In this document: piece by piece, positions 7,139-23,135 of the stretch
How the letters are laid out: every line of letters begins with the position of its first letter
Numbering within the stretch: position 1 is the stretch's first letter
Assembly (NCBI GenBank): GCA_029777935.1
Contig: JAKORH010000298.1
Location: 1-51,740 of the forward strand
Length of the DNA: 51,740 nt
DNA from: Pseudomonadota bacterium
GTDB lineage: Bacteria; Pseudomonadota; Gammaproteobacteria; Burkholderiales; Burkholderiaceae
Direction: 5' to 3'
Notes under the pieces: model-generated
Told to the model about the DNA's origin: nothing
Seen by the model: only the letters and a program-made list of their open reading frames with translations
Databases searched by the model: none
Position numbers and translations under genes: made by a program

Positions 7139-9607
7139 TCAGGGCAGCGTAGCGATCAGCACCGCATTGCCCGACGTGATCGCGAAGCGATTGCCGCCGA
7201 GCCACGCGATGCGGCGTGGCGACGACAGGCTCGGACTGGCGCCCAGCACGATGCCGGACTGCCCGGCGATGCCGAGCACCGTCGTGACGGTGCCGTCGGG
7301 CGCGATCTTGCGGATCGTGTGGTTGCCGGTGTCGGCGACGTACAGGTTGCCGCTGCCGTCGAACGCCAGGCCTTCGGGTCGATTGAATCGCGAGGTTGCT
7401 CCTGTGCCGTCGGCGCTGCCGCACGATGGCGTCGAAGGCAGAGCGCCCGCGATCGTGGTTACGAAACCGTCTGTGGCGATGCGTCGAATGGAGCAGTTGA
7501 ACGTGTCCGCGACGTATAGATTCCCGGCGCCGTCGGCAACGATGCCGGCGCCATTTTCGTATTGGTAGGAGTAAGAAGCGCTATCAAGCGAAGAGCCGCC
7601 AGTCGCCCTGATGATCGCCTGATTACCGGGGCCGTCGGCGAACATGAAGCTGGGCGGCGCAACACTACGGCCGGCGAGGAACGTGACATTGCCCGCGACA
7701 TCGATCCGTTCGAACACGCTGTATGGCGTACCTGCATAGACGGAGATCTCGTAGGTCGCATCCAGATGCAGACTACGTCCCAGGAAATAGCCGCCGCCGG
7801 CAGCGGTAGCGATCGTGACCACGCTGTCACGCGCCAGACGGGTCGTAACTTGTCCCGACGGCGAGACGGCGCGCACCAAGCCGTTGCCGCTGTCGGCGAC
7901 GAGCAGATCGCCCGAAGCATCGATGGCGATGTCGCCAAGTTTTCCGAATCGCGCTGCCGTCCCCATCGCGTCGATGTACCCAGGATTGAGTGCAGAACCG
8001 GCCAGCGTGGTCACGATGCCTGACGGCATGATCTGACGGATCGTGTCGTTGCCGAAGTCCGCGATGAACACGTTACCGTTTGCCGCGGCTGCGACGCCGA
8101 GAGGATTACGAAACCGAGCGGCAGCCCCGGTCCCGTCCTCGCTGCCCGCTGATGGTGCCGCACCGGCCCAGGTGCTGACCACGCCGTCCGGTGTGATCCT
8201 GCGGACGGTCAGGTTGCCGTCGTCCGCAACGAACACGTTGCCGTCGGCGTCGACCGCGATACCGCGCAGGCTGCTGAAGCGGGCCGCACTGCCGACCCCG
8301 TCCAAGTAGCCGGCCAGGCCTGCCGCTCCGGCGACGGTCGTGACGACGCCGGCCGGCGTGATCTTGCGAACGGTGAGTCGGTCGGAGACGTACAGGTTGT
8401 CCGTGCTGTCGATGGCCAATGCGCCGGGCCCGGCGAATCTCGCCGCGCTGCCGGTTCCATCGGCGCCGCCCGCCTGGCCTGCGATTCCCGCAAAGGTCGA
8501 GACGACTCCCGCCGGCGTGATCTTGCGAATGACGACGTTATTCGTGTCGGCGACGTAGACATTGCCTGCCGAATCGACCGCCACAGCGGACGGGTAGTTG
8601 AACAATGCCGACGCCCCGGTGCCGTCGCTGCTTCCGATGACGCGGGGTGTACCCGCGACGGTCGTGACAACGCCGGCCGACGTGATCTTGCGGATCGTGC
8701 TGTTCCATTGATCGGCGAAGATCACGTTTCCAGTCCTGTCGACGGCGATGCCCCCCGGCGCCCATGCGACCACGTCGACCCCCCCGAAGCTGGCCGATGG
8801 GCCGACGCCATCGCTGGAGCCGAACACGTAGTAGGTTCCTGCCAGGATGGTCGCTTCGCCGGAAGGACTTATCCGTCGGATCGTGCCGTCTTCAGGGTTG
8901 GCGTAAAGATTGCCGGCAGCGTCGACGGCAGCGTGGCGCAGGCAGAAGGGCAGCGACTGCGTGCTGATGAATCCCTGCGGGGAAATGGTGCGATTGCAGT
9001 TCGTGCCATAAGCGCCCACGCGCAGCGAACCGCTGGCATCGATGGCGACATCTTCGGCGGAATCGAAGCGCGCGCTGATGCCTGCGCCGTCGACGTTGCC
9101 GGGTCCGCCGATGTTCCCGGCCAGAAGCTGTAGCGTCGCCGCCGGTGCACCCGCTGCGCGCACGGCCAAGCGCGCCGAGTTGCTGGTGGCGGCGCCCGCG
9201 CTGTTGCTGGCCACGGCGCGTAGCTGGACACCATTCATGCTGCCATCGGTCGAGGCGAATGCGTAGCTCGCGCTGGTTGCGCCGGGGATGTCGATCCAGT
9301 TCGCGCCGCCATTGCTGCTCAGTTGCCACCGATAGTTCACGGCGTCTCCGGCAGCGGCAACGCTGAAGCTCGCCGCGGAGGGTGCGACCACGACCTGGTC
9401 GATCGGCTGCGCGCTGATGGTGGGTGCAGTGACCTGCGGCGGCGGTGGCGGCGGAGGCGTGACGGGTGGAGGCGTGACGGGTGCCGACGCTCCGCCGGAG
9501 TCGGAGCCGCCGCCGCACGCCCCCAGCGCGCCGAGCAGCGCAAGCGTGGCTGCCGCGAACAGGATGCGGCGCCCGCTGCGCTGCGCCGAAGTCGAAAGAA
9601 CCTTCAT
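7139..9607 (-). CDS. NHL-repeat lipoprotein with N-terminal Ig-like domain (copy 1)
   Basis: This 822-residue protein has a lipoprotein signal with lipobox LGACG, followed by a Ser/Gly linker and a proline run. An Ig-like domain follows (about residues 65-150). The remainder consists of NHL beta-propeller repeats with the phrases DGSGNLYVADTGNHTIRKI, VAVDSAGNVYVADTNN and GVVTTVAG. It should be anchored in the envelope and exposed as a binding propeller. No catalytic motif is visible. I chose the ATG at 9607 over the one at 9622 because GGAAGAG lies at proper distance before it. It is a tandem paralogue of the next gene upstream, and the last about 240 bp of the two genes are nearly identical. 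Confidence 0.85.
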   Translation of the reverse strand: MKVLSTSAQRSGRRILFAAATLALLGALGACGGGSDSGGASAPVTPPPVTPPPPPPPQVTAPTISAQPIDQVVVAPSAASFSVAAAGDAVNYRWQLSSNGGANWIDIPGATSASYAFASTDGSMNGVQLRAVASNSAGAATSNSARLAVRAAGAPAATLQLLAGNIGGPGNVDGAGISARFDSAEDVAIDASGSLRVGAYGTNCNRTISPQGFISTQSLPFCLRHAAVDAAGNLYANPEDGTIRRISPSGEATILAGTYYVFGSSDGVGPSASFGGVDVVAWAPGGIAVDRTGNVIFADQWNSTIRKITSAGVVTTVAGTPRVIGSSDGTGASALFNYPSAVAVDSAGNVYVADTNNVVIRKITPAGVVSTFAGIAGQAGGADGTGSAARFAGPGALAIDSTDNLYVSDRLTVRKITPAGVVTTVAGAAGLAGYLDGVGSAARFSSLRGIAVDADGNVFVADDGNLTVRRITPDGVVSTWAGAAPSAGSEDGTGAAARFRNPLGVAAAANGNVFIADFGNDTIRQIMPSGIVTTLAGSALNPGYIDAMGTAARFGKLGDIAIDASGDLLVADSGNGLVRAVSPSGQVTTRLARDSVVTIATAAGGGYFLGRSLHLDATYEISVYAGTPYSVFERIDVAGNVTFLAGRSVAPPSFMFADGPGNQAIIRATGGSSLDSASYSYQYENGAGIVADGAGNLYVADTFNCSIRRIATDGFVTTIAGALPSTPSCGSADGTGATSRFNRPEGLAFDGSGNLYVADTGNHTIRKIAPDGTVTTVLGIAGQSGIVLGASPSLSSPRRIAWLGGNRFAITSGNAVLIATLP

Positions 9608-9676
9608 CGCATGCTCTTCCACCGAAAGTTCACTGCGAACGCGCCGGCGCCGACCTGCGGAGCGGCCACGTTCGAA

Positions 9677-9917
9677 TCAAGGCAGCGTGGCAATCAGCAC
9701 CGCATTGCCCGACGTGATCGCGAAGCGATTGCCGCCGAGCCACGCGATGCGCCGCGCCGACGACAGGCTCGGACTGGCGCCCAGCACGATGCCGGACTGC
9801 CCCACAACGCCAAGCACCGTCGTGACCGTTCCGTCGGGCGCGATCTTGCGGATCGTGTGGTTGCCGGTGTCGGCCACGTACAGGTTGCCGCTGCCGTCGA
9901 ACGCCAGGCCTTCGGGC
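9677..9917 (-). repeat. Paralogous 3'-end repeat shared with 7139-7380
   Basis: About 240 bases at the 3' end of this NHL gene match 7139-7380 at the end of the other copy with only scattered substitutions. Upstream of this block the two genes diverge strongly. The sharp boundary fits recent gene conversion or selection on the last propeller blade. Confidence 0.8.
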
Positions 9918-12100
9918 AGTCGGAATCGCGCGGTGTCGCCCGGGCCGTCGGCGGCGGCGCAGAAGTAGTCGCCCGGGCTCGAACGCAGGCGCCCGGCGAC
10001 GGTCGTTGTCGCTCCGGACGCGCTGATGCGGCGGATCGCGCAGTTGTCTCTATCGGCGACCAGCACGTTGCCGGCGGCGTCTGCCGCGATAGCGCCGCTC
10101 TGCCCGAACAGCGCCTGATCGCCCGGGCCGTCACGGGCAGCCGCGCCGAGCGCAAAGTCCGAAGCGTCCGGGGACTTGCCTGCGAGCGCGAGCACGCTTC
10201 CGGCGGCATCGATCCGCTCGAACTGGCTGTAGGTGAGGCAGGGACCGATCGGGTTGAAGCAGGTTACGTTGTTTCGTCCGAGATAGATGTTCCCCGCCCT
10301 GACATCGATTCCCGTGGCGGCGCGCGCCAGCCGCAGCGAAACCTGACCCGATGTAGTGACGCTGCGGACAGTACCGTTGCCGGTGTCCGTCACGAGGATG
10401 TTTCCCGCTGCATCGAGCGCCAGATCGCTGGGCGCATTGAAGCGTGCGACGGGCCCGCTCGCGTCGGTGTTGCCCGGATTCATCGCGAAGCCCGCGAGCG
10501 TCGTGACGTCGCCGGCGGCGGAGATCTGCCGGATCGTATGATTGCCGGTGTCGGCGACGTAGACCGTGCCGTTTGCAGCCGCGGCAAGTCCGATCGGTGA
10601 ACGGAAACTCGCGGCGGCGCGCATGCCGTCTGCGCTGCCCGCGACACCAGGGCCGGCGCCGGCCCACGTCGTGACCAGACCGTCGCTCGAGATTCGTCGG
10701 ATCGCCGCGTTGCCGGTGTCGGCGACAAACAGGTTGCCGCTGCGATCGATCGCGACGCTCATCGGATTGCGGAAACGGGCCGCGTTGCCGGCTCCGTCGG
10801 CGTAATCGTGCTGGCCGGCTGCCCCGGCAACGGTCGCCACCACGCCGGCGGGCGTGACCTTGCGGATGGTCGAGTTGTCGCGATCGGCGACGTACACGTT
10901 GTCCGCCGCATCAATGGCCAGTCCGGACGGCGCCGCGAAGCGCGCCGCGCTTCCGGTCCCGTCCGCTGCGCCCCACTGTCCTGCGAGTCCTGCCAGGGTC
11001 GTCACCACTCCTGCGGCAGTGACTTTGCGCAGCGTGTGGTTGAACTGGTCGGCCACGATCAGGTTGCCGGATCGGTCGACGACCAGCGCGTACGGGAAGT
11101 TGAACAGCGCCGCGGTACCCGTGCCGTCGGCGCTGCCGCGCACGCCGGCCGTGCCAGCGATAGTCGTCACCACGCCTGCGGGCGTGATGCGAAGGATCAC
11201 GCTGTTGCCCTGATCGGCCACGAACACGTTGCCGGCCGCGTCCACCGCGACGCCGCCGCTCGTGGAGACCGATGCGCCCAATGCCGTCAGCACGCCGTCC
11301 GCAGTCAGTTTGCGGATCGTCCCGTCGCGATTATTGAAATACATGTTGCCCGCGGCGTCGAACGCAAACTGGCGCTCGTCATTGCAGTAGGCCGGCTGGA
11401 CGACGGGCAGGGCGGTCGTGCTGACGAAACCTTCCGCCGAAATCCGGCGCAGGCACGGTGCCGACGGTGCCGCTTGGCTATCGCCGGTAACGCTGAAGCC
11501 GTCCCAGATCACCAGCGCTCCCGCACCATCGATCGCGATGCTGCCGGGACTGCTAAACCGCGCACTGCGTCCCGCTCCGTCGCGGCTGCCGGCTCCCGCG
11601 ATGCTGCCCGCCAGCAACTGCAGCGTCGCGGCCGGTGCGCCCGCGGTACGCACGGCGAGTGTCGCCGGATCGCTCGCGACCGTTCCTGTCGCGTTGCTCG
11701 CAAGCGCGCGCAGCATCAAGCCGTTCATGCCAGCCGAGGTCGAGCCGGTCGTGTAAGCCGCGGTTGCGGCCGGCAGGTCGTTCCAGACCGCTCCGCCGTC
11801 GATGCTCATCTGCCACCGGAACGTGACGTTGTCCCCGCTCGCGGCGACGCTGAAGCTGGCGGCGGCCGGCGCGACGACGGTCTGGTCGCCCGGTTGAACC
11901 GTGAAGCCGAGGCTCTGTGGTCCTGGAGGGGGAGGCGACGGCGACGGGGATGGGGATGGTGTGGGCGTCGGATTCACCGGCGTCAACGGCACCGAGCCTG
12001 AATCGGAGCCGCCCCCGCACGCCGCCAGCGTGCACACCAGCGCCGCCGTCGGCGCCGCCAGCAGCATCCGCAATCTGCGCGCCGATTCAGCAACCGCCAT
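9677..12100 (-). CDS. NHL-repeat lipoprotein with N-terminal Ig-like domain (copy 2)
   Basis: The 807-residue paralogue of the neighbouring lipoprotein has the same architecture: lipobox LAACG, a Ser/Gly stretch, a Thr-Pro/Ser-Pro linker, an Ig-like domain, and a long series of NHL repeats with GNxYVAD and GVVTTxAG phrases. The C-terminal repeat is almost identical to that of copy 1. The start is set at the ATG at 12100. A longer reading would need a TTG 12 bases upstream. A GGGGG stretch precedes the ATG, but the ribosome-binding site is poor. The gap to copy 1 is only 69 bases, so they may be cotranscribed with this copy first. Its ligand is unknown. Confidence 0.83.
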   Translation of the reverse strand: MAVAESARRLRMLLAAPTAALVCTLAACGGGSDSGSVPLTPVNPTPTPSPSPSPSPPPPGPQSLGFTVQPGDQTVVAPAAASFSVAASGDNVTFRWQMSIDGGAVWNDLPAATAAYTTGSTSAGMNGLMLRALASNATGTVASDPATLAVRTAGAPAATLQLLAGSIAGAGSRDGAGRSARFSSPGSIAIDGAGALVIWDGFSVTGDSQAAPSAPCLRRISAEGFVSTTALPVVQPAYCNDERQFAFDAAGNMYFNNRDGTIRKLTADGVLTALGASVSTSGGVAVDAAGNVFVADQGNSVILRITPAGVVTTIAGTAGVRGSADGTGTAALFNFPYALVVDRSGNLIVADQFNHTLRKVTAAGVVTTLAGLAGQWGAADGTGSAARFAAPSGLAIDAADNVYVADRDNSTIRKVTPAGVVATVAGAAGQHDYADGAGNAARFRNPMSVAIDRSGNLFVADTGNAAIRRISSDGLVTTWAGAGPGVAGSADGMRAAASFRSPIGLAAAANGTVYVADTGNHTIRQISAAGDVTTLAGFAMNPGNTDASGPVARFNAPSDLALDAAGNILVTDTGNGTVRSVTTSGQVSLRLARAATGIDVRAGNIYLGRNNVTCFNPIGPCLTYSQFERIDAAGSVLALAGKSPDASDFALGAAARDGPGDQALFGQSGAIAADAAGNVLVADRDNCAIRRISASGATTTVAGRLRSSPGDYFCAAADGPGDTARFRLPEGLAFDGSGNLYVADTGNHTIRKIAPDGTVTTVLGVVGQSGIVLGASPSLSSARRIAWLGGNRFAITSGNAVLIATLP

Positions 12101-12198
12101 GTCAACCCCCAACCGCTTACATCACAGTGATTGTACTTAGCGGTCCGCTGGGTGCAGAGGTTGACCGCGCGCAAGTGGGAGGCGGGGGGAGGCGGGCG

Positions 12199-13790: not shown

Positions 13791-13826
13791 CATGTTTCCC
13801 ACATGCTTATATGTTGAGCACATGTC
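13791..13826 (+). promoter_or_regulatory. Probable operator/promoter of the VapBC-type module
   Basis: Just before and overlapping the antitoxin start are several ACAT/ATGT boxes. One clear inverted pair is ATGT-TGAGC-ACAT (13811-13823). RHH antitoxins usually bind such short repeats to autoregulate their operon. The assignment is by position and symmetry only. Confidence 0.4.
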
Positions 13827-14052
13827 AACCATGATCCAGTTGCGCCACGTTCCGGACGACCTCCACCGCAAGCTGAAGGCGCGGGCTGCGTTGGCCGGCA
13901 TGTCGCTGTCCGATTACCTCCTGCGCGAGATCCGAGACATCGCGGAACGTCCGAGCATCACGGAGTTGCGGGCACGCCTCGACCGTCGCGCCCCGGTGCG
14001 ACCGACGCTCTCGCCAGCCAAGGCCGTTCGCGCAGAGCGAGACGGGCGTTGA
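13822..14052 (+). CDS. FitA/VapB-type ribbon-helix-helix antitoxin
   Basis: The 76-residue protein has an N-terminal ribbon-helix-helix segment (MIQLRHVPDDLHRKLKARA, then AGMSLSDYLLREI) characteristic of FitA-like VapB antitoxins. A flexible C-terminal tail (RLDRRAPV and onward) would wrap the toxin. I chose the ATG at 13822; 13831 is also possible, and the in-frame ATG at 13792 would only add residues encoded by the operator. It overlaps the toxin gene by four bases. The module probably controls itself through the repeats at its own start. Confidence 0.88.
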   Translation: MSTMIQLRHVPDDLHRKLKARAALAGMSLSDYLLREIRDIAERPSITELRARLDRRAPVRPTLSPAKAVRAERDGR

Positions 14053-14441
14053 TTGTCGTCGACGCGTCCGCGGTCATCGAGGTATTGCTTGGTACCTCGG
14101 CGGCAAGTCGAATCGCCGATCGGTTCTTCGCCGGAGGCGAGACACTGCACGCACCGCATCTGCTCGATGTCGAAGTTGCGCAGGTGTTGCGAAGGTATGC
14201 GCTTGCGCGTGCGTTTGGCGCTGAGCGCGGCGAGGAGGCGCTCGAGGATCTCGCCGAATTCCCGATCTCGCGCTACCCTCATCAACCGTTCCTGTTCCGC
14301 ATTTGGGAACTGCGACACAACGTCACCGCCTACGACGCCGCGTATATCGCCTTGGCTGAAGCGCTTGATGTGCCGCTCGTGACGCGCGATGCGAAGCTGG
14401 CATCGACCGACGGTCACAAGGCGCGAATTGAACTCGTGTGA
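14049..14441 (+). CDS. VapC-type PIN-domain ribonuclease toxin
   Basis: The 130-residue PIN protein begins at a TTG that overlaps the antitoxin stop (TTGA). The four acidic metal ligands of PIN nucleases are in place: D5 in VVDASAV, E42 in LDVEVAQVL, D96 in AYDAAYIALAE and D114 in LVTRDAKL. VapC toxins cut specific tRNA or rRNA sites when the antitoxin is lost. The complete catalytic set and intact antitoxin suggest a functional pair. It ends 10 bases from the 3' end of the convergent qhpE gene. Confidence 0.9.
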   Translation: MIVVDASAVIEVLLGTSAASRIADRFFAGGETLHAPHLLDVEVAQVLRRYALARAFGAERGEEALEDLAEFPISRYPHQPFLFRIWELRHNVTAYDAAYIALAEALDVPLVTRDAKLASTDGHKARIELV

Positions 14442-14451
14442 CGTCCAGCCC

Positions 14452-15060
14452 TCACACTGAAGCGAGATGCACGAGCGCTCGTGCACACGCGAACGATGGG
14501 CCGCGCAAATTGGCATGCGACGAAGCGCGATCGAGGTCCCGCGGCCGGCCCGGTGCGGCGAGTCGCGTTGCTCCGCTTCTTCGAACTTCGCCGAACGCGA
14601 GCGAGTCATCTGCCGTGACCGCGTAGACACCCGGCAGCGCTGCGGGCAGCCAGCCCGGGCGATCGGCTCTTGCCGATGCGACGACCACGCAGCCGGCTTC
14701 GATCGCGCTCGCGCACGCTGCGGCCAGCACGTCGGCTCCGGGAGGCGGCAGGGACACACTGATATTCACGAAACCGCACCCTTCGGCCGCCGCGCGCAGG
14801 ACGCCGCGCGCGACCAGCGACGGGTACGTCGTAGCGCCGCCGTCGAACACGCGAATCGCGACGATCTCGGCGGCTGGTAGCGCCTCGCGGATGACGCCGG
14901 CGACCGCCGTCCCGTGACCGACGAGATCGCGAAAGTCCCGGTCTTCGCATAGTGTCCCGTCCGGCCCGACGAAGATGCGCCAACCACTGACGCGCCCGCG
15001 CACGTGCGAATGCCACGGATTGACGCCGGTATCGACGATGCCGATACGCAGTGTGGTCAC
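14452..15060 (-). CDS. qhpE: QhpE-like subtilisin-family protease processing the QHNDH gamma subunit
   Basis: In Paracoccus, QhpE is the cytoplasmic subtilisin-like protease that removes the leader peptide of QhpC after the radical SAM enzyme has crosslinked it. This 202-residue product contains the subtilisin triad: D10 in IVDTGVN, H49 in GHGTAVAGV and S189 in GPSFACA. It is short because it has no signal peptide or prodomain, as in QhpE. It starts at a GTG that overlaps the qhpF stop by four bases (GTGA), so it is translationally coupled and is the last gene of the operon. In Paracoccus the order is qhpE before qhpF; here it is reversed. Confidence 0.88.
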   Translation of the reverse strand: MTTLRIGIVDTGVNPWHSHVRGRVSGWRIFVGPDGTLCEDRDFRDLVGHGTAVAGVIREALPAAEIVAIRVFDGGATTYPSLVARGVLRAAAEGCGFVNISVSLPPPGADVLAAACASAIEAGCVVVASARADRPGWLPAALPGVYAVTADDSLAFGEVRRSGATRLAAPGRPRDLDRASSHANLRGPSFACARALVHLASV

Positions 15061-16778
15061 GGCATGGTCGCGAGCGGGCGCTCGTCCCACCGGTGATCGG
15101 CATCGAGCAGGTCGCGCGCATCGTCGGGCGCGAGCGGAGCCAACTCGCCGTCGCGCAGGAAGAAGATCCGATCTAGATCCGCCAGTCCCACCGGTCGATG
15201 CGAGATGACGATCACGGTGCGATCGGGGAACGCGCGCCAAAGGTTGCCCCGCACCTGCGCTTCGGTCTCGAGGTCGAGCGCGGAGAACGCCTCGTCTAGC
15301 ACGAGGATATCGGGCGCATGCAGAAACAGCCGCGCCAGGCCGAGGCGCTGGCGCTGGCCGTCGGACAGCGCCAGTCCGCGCCCGCCGATCACGGTCGCAT
15401 AGCCGTCGGGCAGCGTCTTGATGAATTCGTGTGCACCGGCGAGTGCCGCCGCATGTTCGATTTCCGCGCGCCGCGCGGCTGGATTGCCGTAGCGCAGGTT
15501 CTCCTCGATCGTCGCGTGCATCAGGAACGGCTCGGCGCCCGCATAGCCGAGCGTGCTGCGGCCCGATGCATCGTCGTGCGCAGGCCGCCCGTCGATCAGC
15601 ACTGCACCCGCGGTCGGCAGCCGCAATCCGAACAGCAGTTGCACCAGCGTGGATTTGCCCGCGCCCGACGCGCCGAACAGGCCGACGCGCTCTCCGCGCC
15701 GCACGTGCAGGTGCAGATGCGCGTATAGCGGCGGCTTGCCGGCATAGGCGAACGTCACGTCGGCGAAGCCGATCGCGTCGCTCGTCTCGACGCTCGCGAC
15801 TTCGCGGGCGGCATCCGGGGGCGAATCCTCCGGCCCGAGCACCTCGGCCACGCGATCGAGGCTGACGCGCGCCGACTGCAGGTTGCGCACGAGGCCGAGC
15901 AGTCCCTGCGCCGGCGCGAACAGGCGCCCCTGATACAGCACGAACGCGACGAAGGTGCCGAGGCTGATCGATCCCGCTTCGAGCAGCCGGCCGCCGGCCA
16001 GATAGATCCACGCAAGAGACAGCGTCAGCAGCAGCCCCGGCACGCCGGTCGCGAGCGCGTCCAGCACCTGGAAGCCGACCACCTCGCGGTTCAGCCGCTC
16101 GTTCGCATCCGCCAGCCGCTGCTGTTCCTCCGCCTGCGCGCGATGCAGCCGCAGCGCGCGCAGCGCGCCCAGCCGCTCGGCGAGAAAATGCGAAAGATTC
16201 GCCATGGCCTCGCGCACTTGGTGCGTCCGCGTCTCGATCGGGCGGCGAAACGCAATTGTCGCGACCAGCGCGAGCGCCACGCCGAGGAAGCTCCATAGCG
16301 CCAGCACCGGCGACAGCATGAAGGTGATCGCCGCCGCCACCGCGAGAAACAGCGCGCTCTGCAGCGCGCCCAGCAGCCCGTCGACCAGCAGCGTCTGGAT
16401 GCGCGGCACGTCGGTGCCGAAGCGCGTCAGCAGATCGCCGTGGCGGAACGGCTCCAGCGCTTCGAGCGGCCCGGACAGGCAGCGCGCGAACAGCGCCGCG
16501 CGCAGCGCGGCGAGCACGTCGGCCGACAGCCGCGCGTGCACGCGCTGCGACACCGTGGCGAGCACGAGATCGAGCACGGCGAGCCCGAGCAGCGCGCCGG
16601 CGATCGCGGGAATCACGGAGTAGTCGTTGCGGCTTGCCACCGCGTCGACGAACGCCTTGCCCAGCAGCGGTGTCGACAGCGACACCGCGGCGCCGCCGAG
16701 GCCGAGCACGAACAGCACGGCGAGCGCGCCCCAGCGGCCCGCGAGGTGCGGCGTGAAGCGCTCGAGCGTCTTCAGCAC
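15057..16778 (-). CDS. qhpF: QhpF-like ABC exporter (fused membrane and ATPase domains)
   Basis: This half-transporter of 573 residues has about six membrane segments in residues 15-300 and then an ABC ATPase domain. The ATPase carries Walker A GASGAGKST, signature LSDGQRQRL, Walker B ILVLDEAF and the switch histidine in VISHRP. QhpF is thought to export the crosslinked gamma subunit of QHNDH to the periplasm. The GTG start overlaps the end of the preceding U32 gene by seven bases, and the qhpE start overlaps its own stop. This chain of overlaps binds the U32 genes, transporter and protease into one translation unit. Confidence 0.87.
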   Translation of the reverse strand: MLKTLERFTPHLAGRWGALAVLFVLGLGGAAVSLSTPLLGKAFVDAVASRNDYSVIPAIAGALLGLAVLDLVLATVSQRVHARLSADVLAALRAALFARCLSGPLEALEPFRHGDLLTRFGTDVPRIQTLLVDGLLGALQSALFLAVAAAITFMLSPVLALWSFLGVALALVATIAFRRPIETRTHQVREAMANLSHFLAERLGALRALRLHRAQAEEQQRLADANERLNREVVGFQVLDALATGVPGLLLTLSLAWIYLAGGRLLEAGSISLGTFVAFVLYQGRLFAPAQGLLGLVRNLQSARVSLDRVAEVLGPEDSPPDAAREVASVETSDAIGFADVTFAYAGKPPLYAHLHLHVRRGERVGLFGASGAGKSTLVQLLFGLRLPTAGAVLIDGRPAHDDASGRSTLGYAGAEPFLMHATIEENLRYGNPAARRAEIEHAAALAGAHEFIKTLPDGYATVIGGRGLALSDGQRQRLGLARLFLHAPDILVLDEAFSALDLETEAQVRGNLWRAFPDRTVIVISHRPVGLADLDRIFFLRDGELAPLAPDDARDLLDADHRWDERPLATMP

Positions 16779-17743
16779 GTGGAGGCCGCCGGCGCGGTTG
16801 CCTGCTCGCGCCAGACGTCCGGGTAGTAGCACAGGTGCGCATCGCGGCATAGCTCCGGCGCGCCGCGCAGCGCGATCACGCCGTCGCGGATCGCCTCGGG
16901 CGTCGCGTCTTGCCGCGCCAGCTCGAGCGCCGCGGCAGCGAGACGCACCGACGCGGCCTTGCGCGCCAGCGACGCCTCGCGCCCGACCACCTTCAGGCTC
17001 GCGATGCCGAGCCGCGCCAGCCGCGGCAGCGCGCACAGCCCGCAGGGACCGAGCGTGTAGCCGCGACTGGTCTGGCAGCCGCAGTTGTTCTGCGTCCATT
17101 TCCAGAATTCGTAGCGCTCGTCGAGCCGGCCGAACTTGCCGCCGACGCGATCGGTCAGGCAGTAGGTGCCGAGCGCGTGCGTGGTCGAGCACAGGCCTTC
17201 CTCGAACACGCAGCCGTCGTTCAGCACGAAGGCCTCGAACTCGAGACCCGGGATCGCGGTGGCTTCGATCTCGGCGAGCGTCATGTGCCGCGGCAGGATC
17301 ACGCGCGCCACGCCGAGGCTGCGGTAGAAGGCCGCCGCGCCGGGGTTGCGGCAGCTCGCGAGGCTGGAGACGTGCAGCCGCGGCGCGAGACCCTCTTCCC
17401 ACAGCCCCAGCAGCAGTTCCCACTCGGCGACGATCAGCGCGGCCACACCGGCCTCGTCGAGCAGCCTCCGGCCGAATTCGACCAGGCGCGGCACCGCGCC
17501 GGCGGGATATGACGGCGCATTCAGCGTCGCGTACACCGGCCGCCCCTGCGCGAGCGCGACGATGCGGCGCAGGTCGTCGAAGTCCGGCACGCCGGCGGAG
17601 CGCGGATTGCGCCGATGTGCCCACGCCTGCCCGTACGTCTGTTCCCAGCCGGGCGGCGTCAGGCCGCAGTAGAACTCCTGCGCGCCCGCCTCGATCAGCG
17701 GCGCGACCTCCCCGGAATTGCGCAGCGGCGCCAGCACCTTCAC
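16772..17743 (-). CDS. U32-family UbiU-like protein, candidate O2-independent hydroxylase subunit
   Basis: The 323-residue product has the U32 fold signatures GAQEFYCGL (20-28) and ILPRHMTLAEI (149-159). Its cysteine pattern resembles the [4Fe-4S] site of UbiU: C178-x6-C185, then C195, with further cysteines at 221, 223, 234 and 237. E. coli UbiU has CX6C and two later cysteines. UbiU and UbiV form a dimer that hydroxylates ubiquinone precursors without O2; other U32 proteins hydroxylate RNA. It starts at a GTG overlapping the stop of the UbiV-like gene by four bases and overlaps qhpF at the other end. Such coupling inside a QHNDH operon argues for a role in QHNDH maturation, most likely hydroxylation of the cofactor tryptophan. 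Databases may label it peptidase U32. Confidence 0.85.
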   Translation of the reverse strand: MKVLAPLRNSGEVAPLIEAGAQEFYCGLTPPGWEQTYGQAWAHRRNPRSAGVPDFDDLRRIVALAQGRPVYATLNAPSYPAGAVPRLVEFGRRLLDEAGVAALIVAEWELLLGLWEEGLAPRLHVSSLASCRNPGAAAFYRSLGVARVILPRHMTLAEIEATAIPGLEFEAFVLNDGCVFEEGLCSTTHALGTYCLTDRVGGKFGRLDERYEFWKWTQNNCGCQTSRGYTLGPCGLCALPRLARLGIASLKVVGREASLARKAASVRLAAAALELARQDATPEAIRDGVIALRGAPELCRDAHLCYYPDVWREQATAPAASTC

Positions 17744-18579
17744 GGCGTCGCCTCCTCGTGCAGCACGATGCGGTCGGCGTGCGCCAGCCACTCGCTCGCC
17801 GCCTGCTGCGGGATCTCGTAGAACAGCGTGTTGCCGGCGCGCCAGTGGGCGAGCGCCGCATCGGTCCGTGGCGCCGGCAGCGGCCCCGACCGGCACGGCG
17901 CGGAGCAGGGATCGGCGAGCGACTTGGAAAAGCCGCTGCCCTCCGGATACAGCAGCGCTTTCAGCGGGCAGTTGCGGCCCGAGGCCGCGAACGTGAACGG
18001 CAGATGCAGCGCGCGCGCCATGCCGTTGGCTCCGTTGCCGAGGAATCCGCCGTCGAGGTCGACATCGGTCTCGACCGCGCCCACGCCCGCGACCAGCAGG
18101 AAGCGCCGCAACCGCGCGAAGCGCGTGCCGTCATGTGTGGCGCCGGCGCGCGACTCGTCGCCTGCCCGATCCCGATAGGCGCGCGGATCGCGCAGCGAGC
18201 GGTTCATCAGCCGGCCGGCACGCCGCGGCAGCGCCGGATGTCGTTCGCGCAGCAATCCGAGCACGCCCCAGTCGTTGAACACGACGGCGGGCTGGCGCTG
18301 ATTCGCTTCCAGTGCCGCGAGCAGCCGATGCACGCGTTCGAGTCCGGCCGGCGTCGCGAGCGGCGTGAGCAACGTCGGTTCCCAGCCGCGCGCGTGCGCC
18401 GTCGCGCAGAACGCCTCGGCCTCGTCGAGATCGGGCAGCCGGTCCTCGCAGAACTCCGAACCGAAGTACAGCGCGGCGACCGGAGCTTCCGGCAGCAGTT
18501 TCCGCCACGACGCCGGACACGCGTCGCGCGGATCGGCCGGCGCCGCGTCGGGTCGCGTGAGGCGAAGTCCGTATTCCAT
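17740..18579 (-). CDS. U32-family UbiV-like protein, partner of the UbiU-like protein
   Basis: The 279-residue product is close in length to UbiV (about 290). Its four conserved cysteines match the UbiV [4Fe-4S] pattern: C44 in FGSEFCEDR near the N-terminus, then C204, C225 and C229 with the final pair spaced CX3C. The E. coli protein has C39, C180, C193 and C197. The N-terminal phrase ALYFGSEFCEDRLP and the central AVVFNDWGVL are typical of the family. I chose the ATG at 18579 because upstream codons run into a repeat element. The ribosome-binding site is poor. It ends in a four-base overlap with the UbiU-like gene. The paired cluster-binding proteins suggest a heterodimer, as in UbiUV. Confidence 0.83.
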   Translation of the reverse strand: MEYGLRLTRPDAAPADPRDACPASWRKLLPEAPVAALYFGSEFCEDRLPDLDEAEAFCATAHARGWEPTLLTPLATPAGLERVHRLLAALEANQRQPAVVFNDWGVLGLLRERHPALPRRAGRLMNRSLRDPRAYRDRAGDESRAGATHDGTRFARLRRFLLVAGVGAVETDVDLDGGFLGNGANGMARALHLPFTFAASGRNCPLKALLYPEGSGFSKSLADPCSAPCRSGPLPAPRTDAALAHWRAGNTLFYEIPQQAASEWLAHADRIVLHEEATP

Positions 18580-18600
18580 CGCGATGTCAAGATGGCCTAC

Positions 18601-18670
18601 GTCGCCCCGGCGAAGGCCGGGGCCCAGGTGCCGGCGCTCCAAATTGGGTCCCGGCCTGCGCCGGGACGAC
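18601..18670. repeat. REP/MITE-like paired hairpin inside the qhp operon
   Basis: Two GC-rich stems (CCCCGG-CGAAGG-CCGGGG and CCCGGC-CTG-CGCCGGG) bounded by GTCG and CGAC-like ends lie between qhpB and the UbiV-like gene. The same layout occurs at 36823-36903 and 47419-47494. The long stems may weaken transcription into the maturation genes or protect the upstream mRNA. Confidence 0.6.
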
Positions 18671-18712
18671 GATCGCGCAGTGCTTGCATCTCGTCACCGC
18701 CGAACTTCATCG

Positions 18713-19729
18713 TCAATCCGGAACGCTGATCCGCCGCAGATCCATGCCGTCGGATGCCATCTGCAGCACCTTGATCGGTTTCAGCGTTCGCGCATCGAAC
18801 ACCGTCAGCGTCGAGCCGCCGGCGCCGACGTAGATCTTGCGGCCGTCGCTCGACACGTTGACGCCGTAGCAGGTGCCTTCCTTGATCGGCACCGACGCCA
18901 CATAGGTCTTCTTGTCGAGGTCGATCACGGTCAGGTCATCCATCACCGCGTAGGCCTTCCTGCCATCGGGCGCGAGCACCACCGAATACGCCATCGCCGG
19001 CTCGCCCTTCAGCACGATGTCCCGGATGTCCCCGGTAGCCTGGTCGACCAGCAGCAACCCCATCGCCTTCGGCGTGTAGTAGTTCATGCTGGCCACGCCG
19101 CCGTTGTCGAACGCATAGTCCCAGAACGGCAGGATGTTCATCTCCTTGTCGAACATCGGCACGGTCTCGACGATCTTCATCTCGGTGCCGGTGGTGTCGA
19201 TCTTGTACAGGTCCTGGCCGATCGCGTAGATCGTCTTGCCGCCCTTCACTGCGACCAGGTGCGCCACGCCCCACGGCACTTCGACGCTGCGCAGTAGCCT
19301 GCCGGAGGCGAGATCGAACTGCGCCACCACCGGCTTGCCGACGATGATCTGGTCCTTCTTGGTCGTGCGCGACATCAGCGCGCCGTAGGCGGTCTTGCCG
19401 TCGGCGTCGAGCGCGAAGCCGAACATGAATCGGTCCCAGCCGTCGCTCGCGAGGTCGACGGACTCGACCACGCGGTTGGCGGCCAGATCGACCTTGTGCA
19501 CCAGGTGGCGGTTGGTCGCCACGTACATGAACTTCTTGTCCGCGGTCAGCGCGACGTCGCGCGTGGCGCCCTTGATCGGGATGTCGGCAACGATCGCGTC
19601 GGTCTCGCCGTCGATGACCTGGATGACCTCGTAGCCGAGGTAGTAGAGCCGGTCGCGCGCCTCGGCGACACCCGCGTGGATCGTGCACGCGATCGCCGTG
19701 CAGGCGATCAGGAGAAGCTTCGGGTTCAT
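18713..19729 (-). CDS. qhpB: Quinohemoprotein amine dehydrogenase beta subunit
   Basis: The 338-residue periplasmic protein has a signal peptide (about 1-24, ending VAEA) and seven beta-propeller blades, seen as repeated strands such as VALTADKKFMYVAT, FALDADGKTAYG, VVLAPDGRKAYAV and VNVSSDGRKIYVG. The beta subunit of QHNDH covers the active site and, with the alpha and gamma subunits, forms the heterotrimer that oxidises primary amines to aldehyde and ammonia. The length matches the Paracoccus and Pseudomonas proteins (about 340-370 with signal). It lies 42 bases after qhpC, with a hairpin between them. The propeller fold is also found in AADH large subunits, but this context is QHNDH. Confidence 0.93.
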   Translation of the reverse strand: MNPKLLLIACTAIACTIHAGVAEARDRLYYLGYEVIQVIDGETDAIVADIPIKGATRDVALTADKKFMYVATNRHLVHKVDLAANRVVESVDLASDGWDRFMFGFALDADGKTAYGALMSRTTKKDQIIVGKPVVAQFDLASGRLLRSVEVPWGVAHLVAVKGGKTIYAIGQDLYKIDTTGTEMKIVETVPMFDKEMNILPFWDYAFDNGGVASMNYYTPKAMGLLLVDQATGDIRDIVLKGEPAMAYSVVLAPDGRKAYAVMDDLTVIDLDKKTYVASVPIKEGTCYGVNVSSDGRKIYVGAGGSTLTVFDARTLKPIKVLQMASDGMDLRRISVPD

Positions 19730-19771: not shown

Positions 19772-20098
19772 TCAGTCGTACTTCAGGTTGCGCCAGTCGC
19801 GCGCGATGTTCGGACAGGCGACATCGAAGTCCTTGTGATTGGTCAGCCCGTCGGGCATCTGCGCCGGCCACCAGCAGTCGCCCGCGCAGCCGTGGAAGTC
19901 GCGCGCCGATGCCTGGCAGTTGCCGATCGGATAGGTCGGCCGCGGATTGGTCTCCCAGCCGGTGTCGAAGATCGTCGCGCAGCCCTGCGGCACCGGCGGC
20001 AGCTTGCCGAGCGCCTCGGCCGTGGGCTGCTCGCCGTCGGCCAGGCGCTCGATCGCGCGGGCCTTCTCGTTCAAAGCCTCGATGAGCTTCTTCTTCAT
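19772..20098 (-). CDS. qhpC: Quinohemoprotein amine dehydrogenase gamma subunit precursor (CTQ-bearing)
   Basis: This 108-residue precursor carries the CTQ cofactor. Every crosslink partner known from Paracoccus and Pseudomonas is present at identical spacing: C40-E49 (x8), C61-D67 (x5), C75-D83 (x7), and C71 with W77 in the GCAGDCWWPAQ motif for CTQ. The N-terminal about 35-38 residues are a charged, non-Sec leader, removed by QhpE after crosslinking. I chose the ATG at 20098: AGGAG sits six bases before it but directly abuts the alternative ATG at 20104. One extra cysteine, C95, has no counterpart in the known mature gamma subunits. It lies 23 bases after qhpD. Confidence 0.95.
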   Translation of the reverse strand: MKKKLIEALNEKARAIERLADGEQPTAEALGKLPPVPQGCATIFDTGWETNPRPTYPIGNCQASARDFHGCAGDCWWPAQMPDGLTNHKDFDVACPNIARDWRNLKYD

Positions 20099-20121
20099 CG
20101 CCATCTCCTGTCAGAGCAAGG

Positions 20122-21558
20122 TCAACCCTCGGCGCGCCGTGCGAGGAAAGCGAGCACACGGTCGTCGGGGGCGCGGCGCAGCGCCGCGTACACGCGAATG
20201 CCGATCTCGATCCAGCGCCGGATGAAGTCGCACGACCCGCCCGGCGCCAGGCCGAGTTCGCTTTCGCGCAGGTGGTTGTCGTGGTGGCAGCCGCCCGCGC
20301 ACAGGCTGCGCGCCCAGCACGTGCTGCACGCGTTCTGTCGCGGCGCGGCCTGCGCGGCGAGGCAGGCGCGGATGCGGTCGTGATCGATGCCGCGCTCGAG
20401 ATCGCCGACGCGAAAGTGCTCCACGCCCGCCAGCCGATGGCACAGGTAGAAGCGGCCTTCCGCGTCGAGCGCGAGGTAGCCCAGCCCCGCGCCGCACGGC
20501 GCCTCCTTCGGTTGCCCCTGATGCAAGCGCGCGAGCAGGTCGAGCAGGTTGGAAAACGGCAGCAGCCGTCCTGCCTCGGCCTCCTGAACGAAACGCTCCG
20601 CGACTTGCGCAAAGCCCGCGAGCAGGGTCGCCTCCTGCGCGGGTGTGGGCAGCAGCGCCGCGCTGACAGGGCTCACCGGCGCTATGCCGACTTCGAGGAA
20701 ACCGAGTGCGCGCACGTGATCGAATACCTCGGGCACGCGCTGCCACTGCTCGGGCGTCAGCGTCACGCGCGCCGCCGGCGGCCGCGGCAGGTGCGCGCGC
20801 AGCGCCTCCAGCCCGGCCACAATGTCGGCATATGTGCCCGCGCCGGCCGTTCCCCCACCCGTCGTTCCACCACTGATGGCGCCCGCATAGCGCCGATTGG
20901 CGTCGTGCAGGTCCGGCGGGCCATCGATGCTGACCGACAGCGAGACCGGATGCGCGCGCAGGAACGCGAGCGCTGCGGGCGTGAAGCGCGTGCCGTTGGT
21001 GGTGAGCGAGACGACCAGCTTCTTGCCACGGGCCTGCGCCGCTGCCTCGGCTTCTAGCACGGCCGCTTCGATCGCCGGCAGGTTGAGCAGCGGCTCGCCG
21101 CCGAAGAGGACCAGTGTCACGCTGGCGCGGTCGCCAGAGGCTTCGACCAGGAAGCGCGCTGCGCGCCGCGCGAGCTCGGGCGACATCAGGCGCGCGGCGC
21201 CGCCGTACGATCCGCCGCCTGCGTAGCAGTAGGTGCAGCGCAGGTTGCACGCCTGCGCGGCCTCGAGCACCAGCGTGCCGAGGGGAATCGGCGCCGGATC
21301 GATCGGCGCCGGCACCGGCCGGCGCGCCCGAGCCGAGGGCACGAGCACCTGCGCGTCGCGCAGCGCTTCGAGCACCTCGCGGTCCGGCTCCTGCGCGCGC
21401 CGCAGATCGATCTCGGTCTCGGTGCGCCAGCGGTCGATCACCTCGCGTGTGGCGTCTTCGATCGCGAACAGGCTCGCGTGCTCGGCGCCGAACAGCAGCG
21501 CGCTGCCGTCCGCACCGGCAAAGATCCGGTGATCCGCGAACGCGTAAACGTCTGTCAT
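20122..21558 (-). CDS. qhpD: Radical SAM enzyme forming thioether crosslinks in QhpC
   Basis: The 478-residue enzyme contains the radical SAM motif CNLRCTYC (C104, C108, C111), the GGEPLL motif (about 159-164), and a SPASM-type C-terminal region with C355, C373, C411, C414, C420, C424 and C443 for auxiliary Fe-S clusters. QhpD makes the three Cys-to-Asp/Glu thioether bonds in the gamma subunit before export. Its N-terminal about 90 residues likely form the substrate-binding domain that holds the QhpC leader. The ATG overlaps the qhpA stop by four bases, and qhpC follows, giving the order A-D-C-B seen in other QHNDH operons. No key residue is missing. Confidence 0.94.
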   Translation of the reverse strand: MTDVYAFADHRIFAGADGSALLFGAEHASLFAIEDATREVIDRWRTETEIDLRRAQEPDREVLEALRDAQVLVPSARARRPVPAPIDPAPIPLGTLVLEAAQACNLRCTYCYAGGGSYGGAARLMSPELARRAARFLVEASGDRASVTLVLFGGEPLLNLPAIEAAVLEAEAAAQARGKKLVVSLTTNGTRFTPAALAFLRAHPVSLSVSIDGPPDLHDANRRYAGAISGGTTGGGTAGAGTYADIVAGLEALRAHLPRPPAARVTLTPEQWQRVPEVFDHVRALGFLEVGIAPVSPVSAALLPTPAQEATLLAGFAQVAERFVQEAEAGRLLPFSNLLDLLARLHQGQPKEAPCGAGLGYLALDAEGRFYLCHRLAGVEHFRVGDLERGIDHDRIRACLAAQAAPRQNACSTCWARSLCAGGCHHDNHLRESELGLAPGGSCDFIRRWIEIGIRVYAALRRAPDDRVLAFLARRAEG

Positions 21559-23135
21559 CGAATCCGCGCGATGAAGTCCGGCATCGTGACGGCGAGCTGC
21601 GCCTGAGCCCGATACGTCTGCGCGCCGCGCTTGTAGTCCGCGACGACCTTCACCAGTCCGCTGTTCTCGCCCGAATAGTTGCGCGCCGGATTGGGGCCGT
21701 AGTCGCCCATCGGCACGTAACGGCCGTTGGGCTGGATCGCGCCGAGCCAGCGCAGATCGTCGTCGTCGGGGCGCGTCTTCTCCTCGGCGAGCCTGAACGT
21801 CGCCGGCACCGGGCCGAGGGCAACGCCTTTCGAACCGCTCTTCGCGTAGGCGATCGCCTCGAACTGAACGCCCTCGGCCGGATAGTGTTGTCCGCCCGAC
21901 AGGCGAGCGCGGCCAAGCTCCGGCGTGATCGCGATGTGGTCGATCTTCGGCGCGAGCGTGATCGAACCGGCCGCGATGCCTTTCAGCGCGAGCTTCGCCG
22001 CGGCGAGCTTGTCGGCGCTGCTGATCACCTCGAGCTGCAGCGCGCCCGGAGCGAGGCGCCTGATCGACAGCACCTTGACCGCGGCGCCGGCGAACGAAAT
22101 GTCAGCAGGCCGCGCGTCGGGCAGGTTCAGGCCCTCGATCGTGAGCGTCGTCTTCTCGCCCTTCAGCAGGAACGCCGGCACGACGCGAGCGACCCTCGCG
22201 GTGCCGTCATCGCGCAGCCAGGTCGCACTCGACGTGCGGAAGTTCGGCGCCGGCAGGTGCCATTCACCGCGCAGCGTGTCGCCCGCCACGATGAACGCGC
22301 CGTGGCTGGCAAAGCCGTTGTTCTGCGTGCGCGTGCGCAGCGCGTAGCCGCCGTAGAGCGTGGCTTCGCCCGCAAACGCGTCGGAGGTTCCGTCGGTGTA
22401 GGTGAAACTTCCGTCGAGCCGGTATTCGGCGTTGCCGGCATCGGCCACGCGCGCTTCGCCCCGATACCAGCCGCGGCCCGGCTCGTAGCCGAACATGGCC
22501 CAGTTGCCGTCGAGCCTGGAGGGCGGCGCCGACCACGCCTTGTCGTACGGCAGCTTCTTCGCGAGGGACGCGAGCACCGCGTCGGCCTCCGTGACCCAGC
22601 GCATCTCGCGCATCTGGAACACGACCGTCGGCACCATGTACAGATGGAAGTCGCGCAGCCGGGCCCACCCATCCGCGGTCATCCGGTGCGAGAAGATCTT
22701 GCCCGCGGTATGGCAGCGCACGCAGGTGGCGAACAACTTCTCTTCCTCCTTGTCGGCGGGCGCCTCGACCTGCTGCGAGTTGTGCCACAGGCTCAGGTAC
22801 GCGACCCTGGCCTGTTCCGCCGGCGTCAGGATCTGCGTGGCGGTGAGTTCCTTCAGCAACCGGTCCATCTCGCCCTGCTTGATCTCCATGCCGTGCAGCC
22901 GCTGCATGCGGTCGACGATCACGGTCCATTCTTCCGGCGTGGTTCGCACTTCCTCGATCCGCGCGATCCGGCCTTCCGCGTTCGCCGCGTGGCACGGCGT
23001 GCACTTCTTCCAGACCAGTGAATCGCGGTCGAACGCCTGCGCGGAACCGGCCGCGACCCACGCCGCGAAGCCGAACGCGAAGACCAGCGACGAGCCGACT
23101 GCAGCGCGGAGGAACTTGCGGGTACTCGAAGCCAT
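21555..23135 (-). CDS. qhpA: Quinohemoprotein amine dehydrogenase alpha subunit (diheme)
   Basis: The 526-residue precursor has a signal peptide (about 1-34, ending AQA) and two heme c sites, C45TPCH49 and C138VRCH142, in the N-terminal cytochrome domain. Beta-sandwich domains follow, as in the four-domain alpha subunit of QHNDH. It takes electrons from CTQ in the gamma subunit and passes them to a soluble cytochrome or azurin. GGAGAGG at the right distance supports the ATG at 23135. It is the first gene of the operon: upstream lie a long leader and the shared 23-bp element at 23372-23394. Its stop overlaps the qhpD start (ATGA). Confidence 0.93.
   Translation of the reverse strand: MASSTRKFLRAAVGSSLVFAFGFAAWVAAGSAQAFDRDSLVWKKCTPCHAANAEGRIARIEEVRTTPEEWTVIVDRMQRLHGMEIKQGEMDRLLKELTATQILTPAEQARVAYLSLWHNSQQVEAPADKEEEKLFATCVRCHTAGKIFSHRMTADGWARLRDFHLYMVPTVVFQMREMRWVTEADAVLASLAKKLPYDKAWSAPPSRLDGNWAMFGYEPGRGWYRGEARVADAGNAEYRLDGSFTYTDGTSDAFAGEATLYGGYALRTRTQNNGFASHGAFIVAGDTLRGEWHLPAPNFRTSSATWLRDDGTARVARVVPAFLLKGEKTTLTIEGLNLPDARPADISFAGAAVKVLSIRRLAPGALQLEVISSADKLAAAKLALKGIAAGSITLAPKIDHIAITPELGRARLSGGQHYPAEGVQFEAIAYAKSGSKGVALGPVPATFRLAEEKTRPDDDDLRWLGAIQPNGRYVPMGDYGPNPARNYSGENSGLVKVVADYKRGAQTYRAQAQLAVTMPDFIARIR

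What the first reader, a model, noticed from the sequence alone, without database searches (positions are those of the whole stretch)
16772..18579. A UbiUV-like U32 pair in the QHNDH operon, where QhpG is absent: a possible O2-independent tryptophan hydroxylase
The operon has every QHNDH structural and maturation gene I know except the flavin monooxygenase QhpG, which in Paracoccus hydroxylates the CTQ-precursor tryptophan of QhpC. In its place, between qhpB and qhpF and locked in by overlapping start/stop codons, are two U32 proteins with UbiV-like (C44, C204, C225, C229) and UbiU-like (C178-x6-C185 plus later cysteines) [4Fe-4S] patterns. UbiUV is a known O2-independent hydroxylase pair. The simplest reading is that this pair hydroxylates W77 of QhpC, so that CTQ could be built without oxygen. 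This would be a protein-modifying U32 hydroxylase. I could not check whether it has been described.
Basis: partly seen in the sequence, partly recalled or inferred. Interest (0 to 1): 0.95.

Follow-up and report, generated by a model that had tools for sequence, protein, structure and literature searches.

The report
Oxygen-free maker of a protein-built quinone
In this gene cluster for a bacterial amine-oxidising enzyme, the gene for the oxygen-using protein that normally builds the enzyme's tryptophan-derived cofactor is missing, and a pair of genes sits there instead, one of the U32 family and one that resembles it; their proteins are predicted to bind iron-sulfur clusters and would likely add the needed hydroxyl groups without oxygen, so that bacteria living without air could make this cofactor.

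Summary
The window carries a quinohemoprotein amine dehydrogenase (QHNDH) operon, qhpA-D-C-B-[U32a-U32b]-F-E, without qhpG. A scan for U32a found 26 loci (Beta- and Gammaproteobacteria, Geobacter and kin), all in qhp operons: 19 of 26 show all eight genes, the other 7 stop at a contig end. Among 18 further genomes found only through QhpC, 7 have U32a and no QhpG, 11 have QhpG and no U32a, none both or neither. NCBI's curated QhpG model passes its cut-off in 11 of 44 genomes, exactly those without U32a, and in 0 of the 33 with it. In one genome the pair sits with the maturation genes (D-U32a-U32b-F-E), apart from the structural genes. QhpC keeps its CTQ Cys/Trp in 33 of 33 U32-type copies. U32b is related to UbiU (hhalign E 2e-20); U32a is more distant, with a UbiV-like cysteine pattern. 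Limits: the exclusion is one deep split on the QhpD tree, the window's own genome is not held, no chemistry was tested. Best reading: an O2-independent peptidyl-tryptophan dihydroxylase standing in for QhpG. No paper in the open-access library holds both 'U32' and 'tryptophylquinone'.

The parts
16772..17743 (-). U32b, UbiU-like U32 protein, 323 aa (GTG start); predicted [4Fe-4S] ligands C178, C185, C195, C234 (or C237)
   Evidence: PF01136 5.6e-25; profile match to UbiU E 2.2e-20; C178/C185/C195/C234/C237 in 32 of 32 operon copies with sequence there; top fold match 5D88 U32
17740..18579 (-). U32a, partner protein, 279 aa, UbiV-like cysteine pattern C44 ... C204-x20-C225-x3-C229
19772..20104 (-). 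qhpC, gamma subunit precursor, the presumed substrate; CTQ residues C73 and W79; other Cys and acidic residues of the crosslinks C42, E51, C63, D69, C77, D85
   Evidence: PF08992 2.5e-17, NF037958 115 bits; these residues are in 33 of 33 U32-type and 19 of 19 QhpG-type copies
20122..21558 (-). qhpD, radical SAM/SPASM thioether maturase
   Evidence: best NCBIfam TIGR03906 315 bits, below its cut-off 453
21555..23135 (-). qhpA, di-heme alpha subunit (two CXXCH)
   Evidence: TIGR03908 295 bits over cut-off; CXXCH count
18713..19729 (-). qhpB, beta-propeller beta subunit
   Evidence: TIGR03907 109 bits, below cut-off 223
15057..16778 (-). qhpF, ABC exporter
   Evidence: blastp match to annotated ABC transporters of qhp operons in L028-L031
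14452..15060 (-). qhpE, subtilisin-like leader protease
   Evidence: NF049966 123 bits, below cut-off 165; PF00082

Best explanation
U32a and U32b, encoded in a qhp operon that lacks qhpG, would likely work as a UbiUV-like iron-sulfur pair that adds two hydroxyl groups to the CTQ-precursor tryptophan of QhpC without using O2, in place of the flavin monooxygenase QhpG. Shown here: the pair lies in the qhp operon in each of 26 distinct loci; no QhpG passes its cut-off in any of the 33 U32a genomes searched; QhpC keeps the CTQ Cys and Trp; U32b is a U32-family relative of UbiU; both proteins carry invariant cysteine sets; in one genome the pair lies with the maturation genes D, F and E, apart from the structural genes. 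Inferred: each subunit binds a [4Fe-4S] cluster, the two form a heterodimer, QhpD first makes the three thioether crosslinks, the pair then dihydroxylates W79 in the cytoplasm, QhpF and QhpE export and trim the product, and the hemes of QhpA finish the oxidation to CTQ. The oxygen donor is unknown; prephenate is the best guess by analogy with UbiUV, RlhA and TrhP.
For: Location: 26 of 26 U32a loci in genome contigs lie in qhp operons, 19 with all eight genes, 7 cut by a contig end; order (qhpB)>U32a>U32b>(qhpF) on one strand in 33 of 33 loci that hold both, of 34 given. Exclusion: among 18 genomes found by QhpC alone, 7 U32a+/QhpG-, 11 U32a-/QhpG+, 0 both, 0 neither; curated QhpG over cut-off in 11 of 44 genomes, precisely those without U32a. 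In two U32a genomes listed at 4.2 Mb the operon lies on one 4.24-Mb contig (G047, G998), and the table row for Geobacter argillaceus (G013) reads as 100% complete (PMC8516083, passages). Cluster D-U32a-U32b-F-E in G103, with two A-C-B clusters elsewhere. Substrate residues kept, W79 in 33 of 33. Relation to O2-independent hydroxylases: U32b to UbiU E 2.2e-20; U32b C-x6-C-x9-C-x38-C against UbiU C-x6-C-x16-C-x38-C, U32a C...C-x20-C-x3-C against UbiV C...C-x12-C-x3-C (PMC6747719, passages). Not for ubiquinone: canonical UbiV passes its cut-off as a separate gene in 14 of 33 U32a genomes, all with Pseudomonadota titles. QhpG dihydroxylates this Trp in the cytoplasm (PMC7876137, Introduction and Discussion read).
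Against: U32-type and QhpG-type operons are two sides of one branch of the QhpD tree (support 94), so the exclusion counts as about one event and the pair could in principle be a co-inherited passenger. U32a is not matched by Pfam or NCBIfam; even the wide U32a profile matches UbiV weakly (E 0.0046, 7.6%) and UbiU somewhat better (E 0.00063, 28%), and narrower ones failed against UbiV (E 0.31; 0.11). The U32b loop with C178-C221 has pLDDT under 50. Most U32a genomes are MAGs, and the genome searches scored at most 30 or 68 QhpG candidates a genome. Weak QhpG-like FAD proteins exist in U32a genomes (104.9 bits in G103; tblastn E 3e-8 to L037 of G023). The pair also occurs in Burkholderiales-type hosts, where O2 may be available. 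I found no measured activity, cluster or product.
Confidence: 0.72

Rival explanations
1. The pair is a true QHNDH maturation factor but does another job: for example it modifies a different QhpC residue (the Cys97 found in all U32-type copies), or serves QhpD, while the Trp is hydroxylated autocatalytically or by the hemes of QhpA, in the manner of MauG.
For: Initial mono-hydroxylation of Trp is thought to be autocatalytic in MADH and LodA/GoxA (PMC7876137 Discussion). C97 is present in 33 of 33 U32-type and 1 of 19 QhpG-type QhpC.
Against: In QhpG-type operons QhpG inserts both oxygens into unmodified Trp; an autocatalytic or peroxide route would need oxidants that anaerobes lack (inference). 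The one other copy with C97 (Novosphingobium L032) has no U32 pair. Known UbiUV chemistry is aromatic ring hydroxylation.
Confidence: 0.16
2. The pair is a passenger fixed by one deep split of the operon lineage; an unrelated enzyme elsewhere in the genome hydroxylates the Trp.
For: Single change on the QhpD tree; many U32a genomes have FAD proteins with weak QhpG-model matches, up to 104.9 bits.
Against: Kept in the same place in 33 of 33 loci over a deep tree, with invariant cysteines; lies with the maturation genes in G103. Weak FAD matches of the same size occur in QhpG+ genomes (117 bits), and two 415-aa ones that were scanned match geranylgeranyl-reductase models best.
Confidence: 0.07
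3. The pair is a second UbiUV that makes ubiquinone (or another quinone) as electron acceptor for the enzyme.
For: U32b resembles UbiU.
Against: UbiU model 53 bits against a cut-off of 440, no UbiV model hit; a separate canonical UbiV in 14 of 33 U32a genomes, all with Pseudomonadota titles; U32b proteins lie apart from UbiU and nine other U32 proteins on a 99%-supported branch.
Confidence: 0.03
4. The pair is a true protease that trims QhpC, as the name U32 peptidase suggests.
For: Family name only.
Against: qhpE, the known leader protease, is present in every locus whose contig runs well past qhpF; conserved cysteine sets fit the Fe-S U32 proteins.
Confidence: 0.02

Closest known systems
UbiU-UbiV, O2-independent ubiquinone hydroxylases (E. 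coli; PMC6747719, passages)
   Same: Two adjacent genes; U32b a clear relative of UbiU with its C-x6-C and x38 spacing; U32a with a UbiV-like far-upstream Cys and C-x3-C; hydroxylation of an aromatic ring is the proposed task
   Different: Different operon and presumed substrate (a protein, not a lipid quinone); U32b has extra invariant cysteines C237, C299, C305; U32b far below the UbiU cut-off, U32a without any UbiV or Pfam match
QhpG, peptidyl tryptophan dihydroxylase (PDB 7ctq; PMC7876137)
   Same: Same operon type, same presumed substrate residue and product, same point in maturation
   Different: QhpG is an FAD monooxygenase that uses O2; the pair is of another protein class
RlhA and TrhP, RNA-hydroxylating U32 proteins (PMC11574389, passages; PMC6599085, listing only)
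   Same: U32 domain, Fe-S cysteine motif, prephenate-dependent hydroxylation
   Different: RNA substrates; act without a U32 partner (recalled); U32b scores 34 bits on the TrhP model (cut-off 534)
MauG, LodB and GoxB, other tryptophylquinone maturases (PMC7876137 Discussion)
   Same: Put an oxygen into a Trp-derived quinone cofactor
   Different: Heme or flavin enzymes acting on a mono-hydroxylated Trp

Membership tests
QHNDH (qhp) operon | alpha subunit with two c-type heme sites, QhpC with CTQ Cys/Trp and crosslink residues, radical SAM QhpD, exporter QhpF, protease QhpE | tested here: met
   QhpD, QhpB and QhpE fall below the curated cut-offs, so the operon is a divergent lineage
QHNDH (qhp) operon | QhpG flavin monooxygenase | tested here: not met
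   absent from the window and below cut-off in 33 of 33 U32a genomes; the window's own genome is not held
U32 family (PF01136) | U32b matches the family profile over its cut-off | tested here: met
   88 bits, cut-off 22.4
U32 family (PF01136) | U32a matches the family profile | tested here: not met
   no Pfam hit for U32a; none of the five divergent kin scanned hits U32, one has a chance-level hit to another family
U32 family (PF01136) | U32a has a U32 fold | tested here: inconclusive
UbiU | NCBIfam UbiU equivalog model over cut-off | tested here: not met
   U32b 53.4 bits, cut-off 440
UbiU | four cluster cysteines C-x6-C-x16-C-x38-C | tested here: inconclusive
   C178-x6-C185-x9-C195-x38-C234, in 32 of 32 copies: same order, two of three spacings
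UbiV | NCBIfam UbiV equivalog model | tested here: not met
   no hit for U32a
UbiV | Cys ligand far upstream plus C-x12-C-x3-C | tested here: inconclusive
   C44 and C204-x20-C225-x3-C229, invariant where sequence exists; in register with the UbiV ligands in a weak alignment
UbiU-UbiV pair | heterodimer, each subunit with one [4Fe-4S] cluster, hydroxylase activity | not testable with these tools
   needs purified protein
QhpG-like peptidyl Trp dihydroxylase (function) | +32 Da on the CTQ-precursor Trp of crosslinked QhpC | not testable with these tools
   needs mass spectrometry

The most novel reading that the evidence does not exclude
A U32 iron-sulfur pair is an O2-independent peptidyl-tryptophan dihydroxylase, probably fed by prephenate: the first U32 hydroxylase that modifies a protein, and an anaerobic route to a tryptophylquinone cofactor, which lets strict anaerobes such as Geobacter build and use CTQ amine dehydrogenases.
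Probability: 0.6. Interest if true: 0.95.

Novelty: new variant of a known kind. Interest (0 to 1): 0.88.

Why it matters
The maturases of tryptophylquinones compared in PMC7876137 are flavin or heme enzymes. A U32 pair in QhpG's place would show that the cofactor can be made without oxygen, would extend U32 hydroxylases from lipids and RNA to proteins, and would give a soluble protein substrate on which the unsolved U32 mechanism (oxygen donor, role of the Fe-S clusters) could be assayed; the ubiquinone substrates are hydrophobic and not commercial (PMC6747719, passage). It also suggests that primary amines can be oxidised with CTQ enzymes in anoxic habitats.

Tried and rejected
Searching the window's own genome: none is held. 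phmmer of both proteins against PDB sequences: no hits at E up to 1. hhalign of narrow U32a alignments against U32b (E 0.07), UbiV (0.31; 0.11) and UbiU (0.011; 0.0035): weak or none; only a wider alignment with divergent kin gave better, still weak, matches. QhpG-profile matches in all 26 U32a genomes at E up to 1e-3: N-terminal FAD region only (about positions 1-200), 54 bits or less; two of the best were scanned and match geranylgeranyl-reductase models best; a 645-aa ORF of G023 (L037) gave tblastn E 3e-8 with one QhpG. Cys97 of QhpC as a U32-specific mark: rejected as strictly specific, since Novosphingobium L032, with a divergent QhpG-like ORF (43 bits on my profile, 60 on NF049967, no Pfam FAD hit), also has it. 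Independent replacements: the QhpD tree shows one split, so the Fisher value (3e-5) must not be read as independent evidence. Third protein search with the wide alignment (120 of 717 hits listed): no listed U32a relative has a precomputed Pfam domain; UniRef names the G. argillaceus copy a U32 family peptidase. In the fold searches no chain named UbiU, UbiV, RlhA or TrhP appeared in the 50 rows shown each. A published seven-gene cluster qhpRADCBFE of Methyloversatilis universalis lists no G (PMC5023235, passages); its type was not determined here. Arcobacter butzleri is also said to have QHNDH (PMC2147049, passages); not examined. Draws for the QhpC survey were centred on groups with known qhp genomes; other phyla were not surveyed.
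Full report
1. What is there. On the minus strand of the window lies an operon qhpA (23135-21555), qhpD (21558-20122), qhpC (20104-19772), qhpB (19729-18713), U32a (18579-17740), U32b (17743-16772), qhpF (16778-15057), qhpE (15060-14452). NCBIfam confirms A and C over curated cut-offs and D, B and E below them, so this is a divergent branch of QHNDH. qhpF was given in a wrong frame; it is named from blastp to annotated exporters of qhp operons. U32b is a U32 protein (PF01136, 88 bits) and hits the UbiU model at 53 bits (cut-off 440). U32a has no match in either library. Start/stop overlaps join U32a-U32b-F-E; 133 bases separate qhpB from U32a.

2. The pair belongs to the operon. Alignments of 32 rows each, chosen from the 120 listed homologues of 407 (U32a) and 539 (U32b), show among others U32a cysteines 44, 58, 204, 225, 229 and U32b cysteines 178, 185, 195, 234, 237, 299, 305 invariant. 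A scan of genome contigs with the U32a alignment gave 162 pattern matches, 27 true relatives and 26 distinct loci. tblastn of the eight window proteins: 19 of 26 loci carry all eight genes; the other 7 (L002, L004, L005, L008, L012, L017, L024) stop at a contig end, and what they show is in the same order. The record titles name Beta- and Gammaproteobacteria, Geobacter and other Desulfuromonadales, two Deltaproteobacteria and one unplaced bacterium. In 33 of 34 loci given to (window, 25 of the 26, and 7 later ones) both U32 genes are held, and in all 33 the order is (B)-U32a-U32b-(F) on one strand.

3. QhpG is absent where the pair is present. True QhpG proteins were taken from plasmid-borne qhp operons; the Paracoccus pantotrophus one matches PDB 7ctq, peptidyl tryptophan dihydroxylase, at 2e-43. 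With five QhpGs as queries, none of the 26 loci nor the window gives more than chance-level tblastn matches (best E 0.022 in L023), and none of the seven plasmid loci has U32a or U32b. In the whole genomes of the 26 loci my QhpG profile gives at best 54 bits, over the FAD-binding part only. To avoid selecting on U32, genomes were then found by QhpC alone (NF037958): 8 of 297, 7 of 398, 3 of 300, 6 of 146, 4 of 121 and 5 of 190 drawn genomes (draws overlap and were centred on groups known to hold qhp). These are 29 distinct genomes, 11 of them already known from the U32a scan and 18 new. Of the 18 new, 7 have U32a (111 to 357 bits) and no QhpG (at most 39.5 bits), 11 have QhpG (322 to 525 bits) and no U32a at E up to 1e-3. 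NCBI's own QhpG model over all 44 genomes is over cut-off in 11, exactly the U32a-less ones (385 to 588 bits); the best in the 33 U32a genomes is 104.9 bits against a cut-off of 240, no higher than second-best proteins of QhpG genomes (117 bits). In the order of G009, one genome has the pair and two have QhpG. In G047 and G998, listed at 4.2 Mb, the operon lies on a 4.24-Mb contig, so absence there is hardly an assembly gap.

4. The pair goes with maturation genes. Genome G103 has two structural clusters A-C-B (L061, L062) and, on another contig, D-U32a-U32b-F-E (L130). No qhpD, qhpE or U32 hit lies in the stretches fetched around L061 (L098, L099; one weak exporter-like match of 64 bits lies in L061); the contig of L062 is only 8 kb. 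The pair is thus grouped with the genes that process QhpC.

5. The substrate is kept. Among 33 U32-type and 19 QhpG-type QhpC copies (L032 counted with the latter, G103's two with the former), C42, E51, C63, D69, C73, C77, W79 and D85 are present in all. C73 and W79 have the spacing of Cys37 and Trp43 of CTQ (PMC7876137); the pairing of the other residues into crosslinks is recalled. QhpA keeps two CXXCH motifs in 30 of 32 U32-type copies (the two others, L010 and L062, begin near a contig start) and in 18 of 18 QhpG-type ones. So the U32-type enzymes should still need a dihydroxylated Trp, a step done by QhpG in Paracoccus (PMC7876137: Introduction and Discussion read, other parts as passages). 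An extra Cys97 marks 33 of 33 U32-type copies, but also Novosphingobium L032, whose operon has only a divergent QhpG-like ORF.

7. Not ubiquinone synthesis. Canonical UbiV passes its cut-off, as a separate gene, in 14 of the 33 U32a genomes, all 14 with Pseudomonadota titles, and in 3 of 11 QhpG genomes.

8. Mechanism, with steps marked. Known from papers: QhpD crosslinks QhpC, QhpG dihydroxylates the Trp in the cytoplasm, QhpE and QhpF trim and export (PMC7876137); UbiU-UbiV is a heterodimer with one [4Fe-4S] cluster each (PMC6747719); [quoted passage not shown] Inferred here: the qhp U32 pair takes QhpG's step with UbiUV-like chemistry and needs no O2. Untested: everything biochemical.

9. 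Weak points. The QhpD tree splits 32 U32-type from 18 QhpG-type rows on one branch (support 94, quick method), so the exclusion is one deep event kept since. Most genomes are MAGs. The window's own genome could not be searched. That Geobacter argillaceus is a strict anaerobe is recalled; the passages seen (PMC8516083) state it for other Geobacterales.

10. Novelty. In the open-access library no paper holds both 'U32' and 'tryptophylquinone', and the five papers with two or more QHNDH/CTQ maturation terms have no title or abstract start on U32; the one read in part (PMC7876137) has no 'U32'. Wider searches were listed only in part or gave nothing relevant (30 of 3,138; 12 of 56; all listed). 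Subscription papers and preprints are not held. I file it as a new variant of a known kind: UbiUV-type chemistry moved to a protein substrate.

Noticed in passing
window 19772-20104, QhpC Cys97: An extra cysteine is present in 33 of 33 U32-type QhpC and absent from 18 of 19 QhpG-type ones; possibly a further crosslink or a contact of the pair. The exception is L032.
   Followed up: partly
L032 11210-12496 (Novosphingobium plasmid): qhp operon with neither the U32 pair nor a standard QhpG: the ORF between qhpB and qhpF resembles mainly the C-terminal half of QhpG (60 bits on NF049967) and lacks a Pfam FAD hit; perhaps a third maturation type.
   Followed up: partly
L131 812-1576, L132 9290-10060, L133 7781-8530: U32a-like paralogues with the same cysteine pattern outside qhp operons in three genomes (G268, G998, G202), beside moeA in L133 and a LysM transglycosylase in L132; function unknown.
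   Followed up: partly
L175 8511-9488 (G026): A U32b-like paralogue (175 bits to the U32b profile) beside FtsJ-type and tetrapyrrole-methylase-type genes, perhaps an RNA modifier.
   Followed up: partly
window 18580-18712: The 133-base gap between qhpB and U32a seems, by eye, to hold an inverted repeat (sequence); not studied.
   Followed up: no
window 40229-43661: A 605-aa protein with a C-terminal MauE (methylamine utilisation) domain, followed by a protein with a cytochrome c domain.
   Followed up: no
window 7139-12112: Two adjacent, similar 811-827 aa proteins that look repetitive by eye.
   Followed up: no
window 13792-14441: Two small plus-strand genes that look like a VapBC-type pair by eye; no search made.
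   Followed up: no
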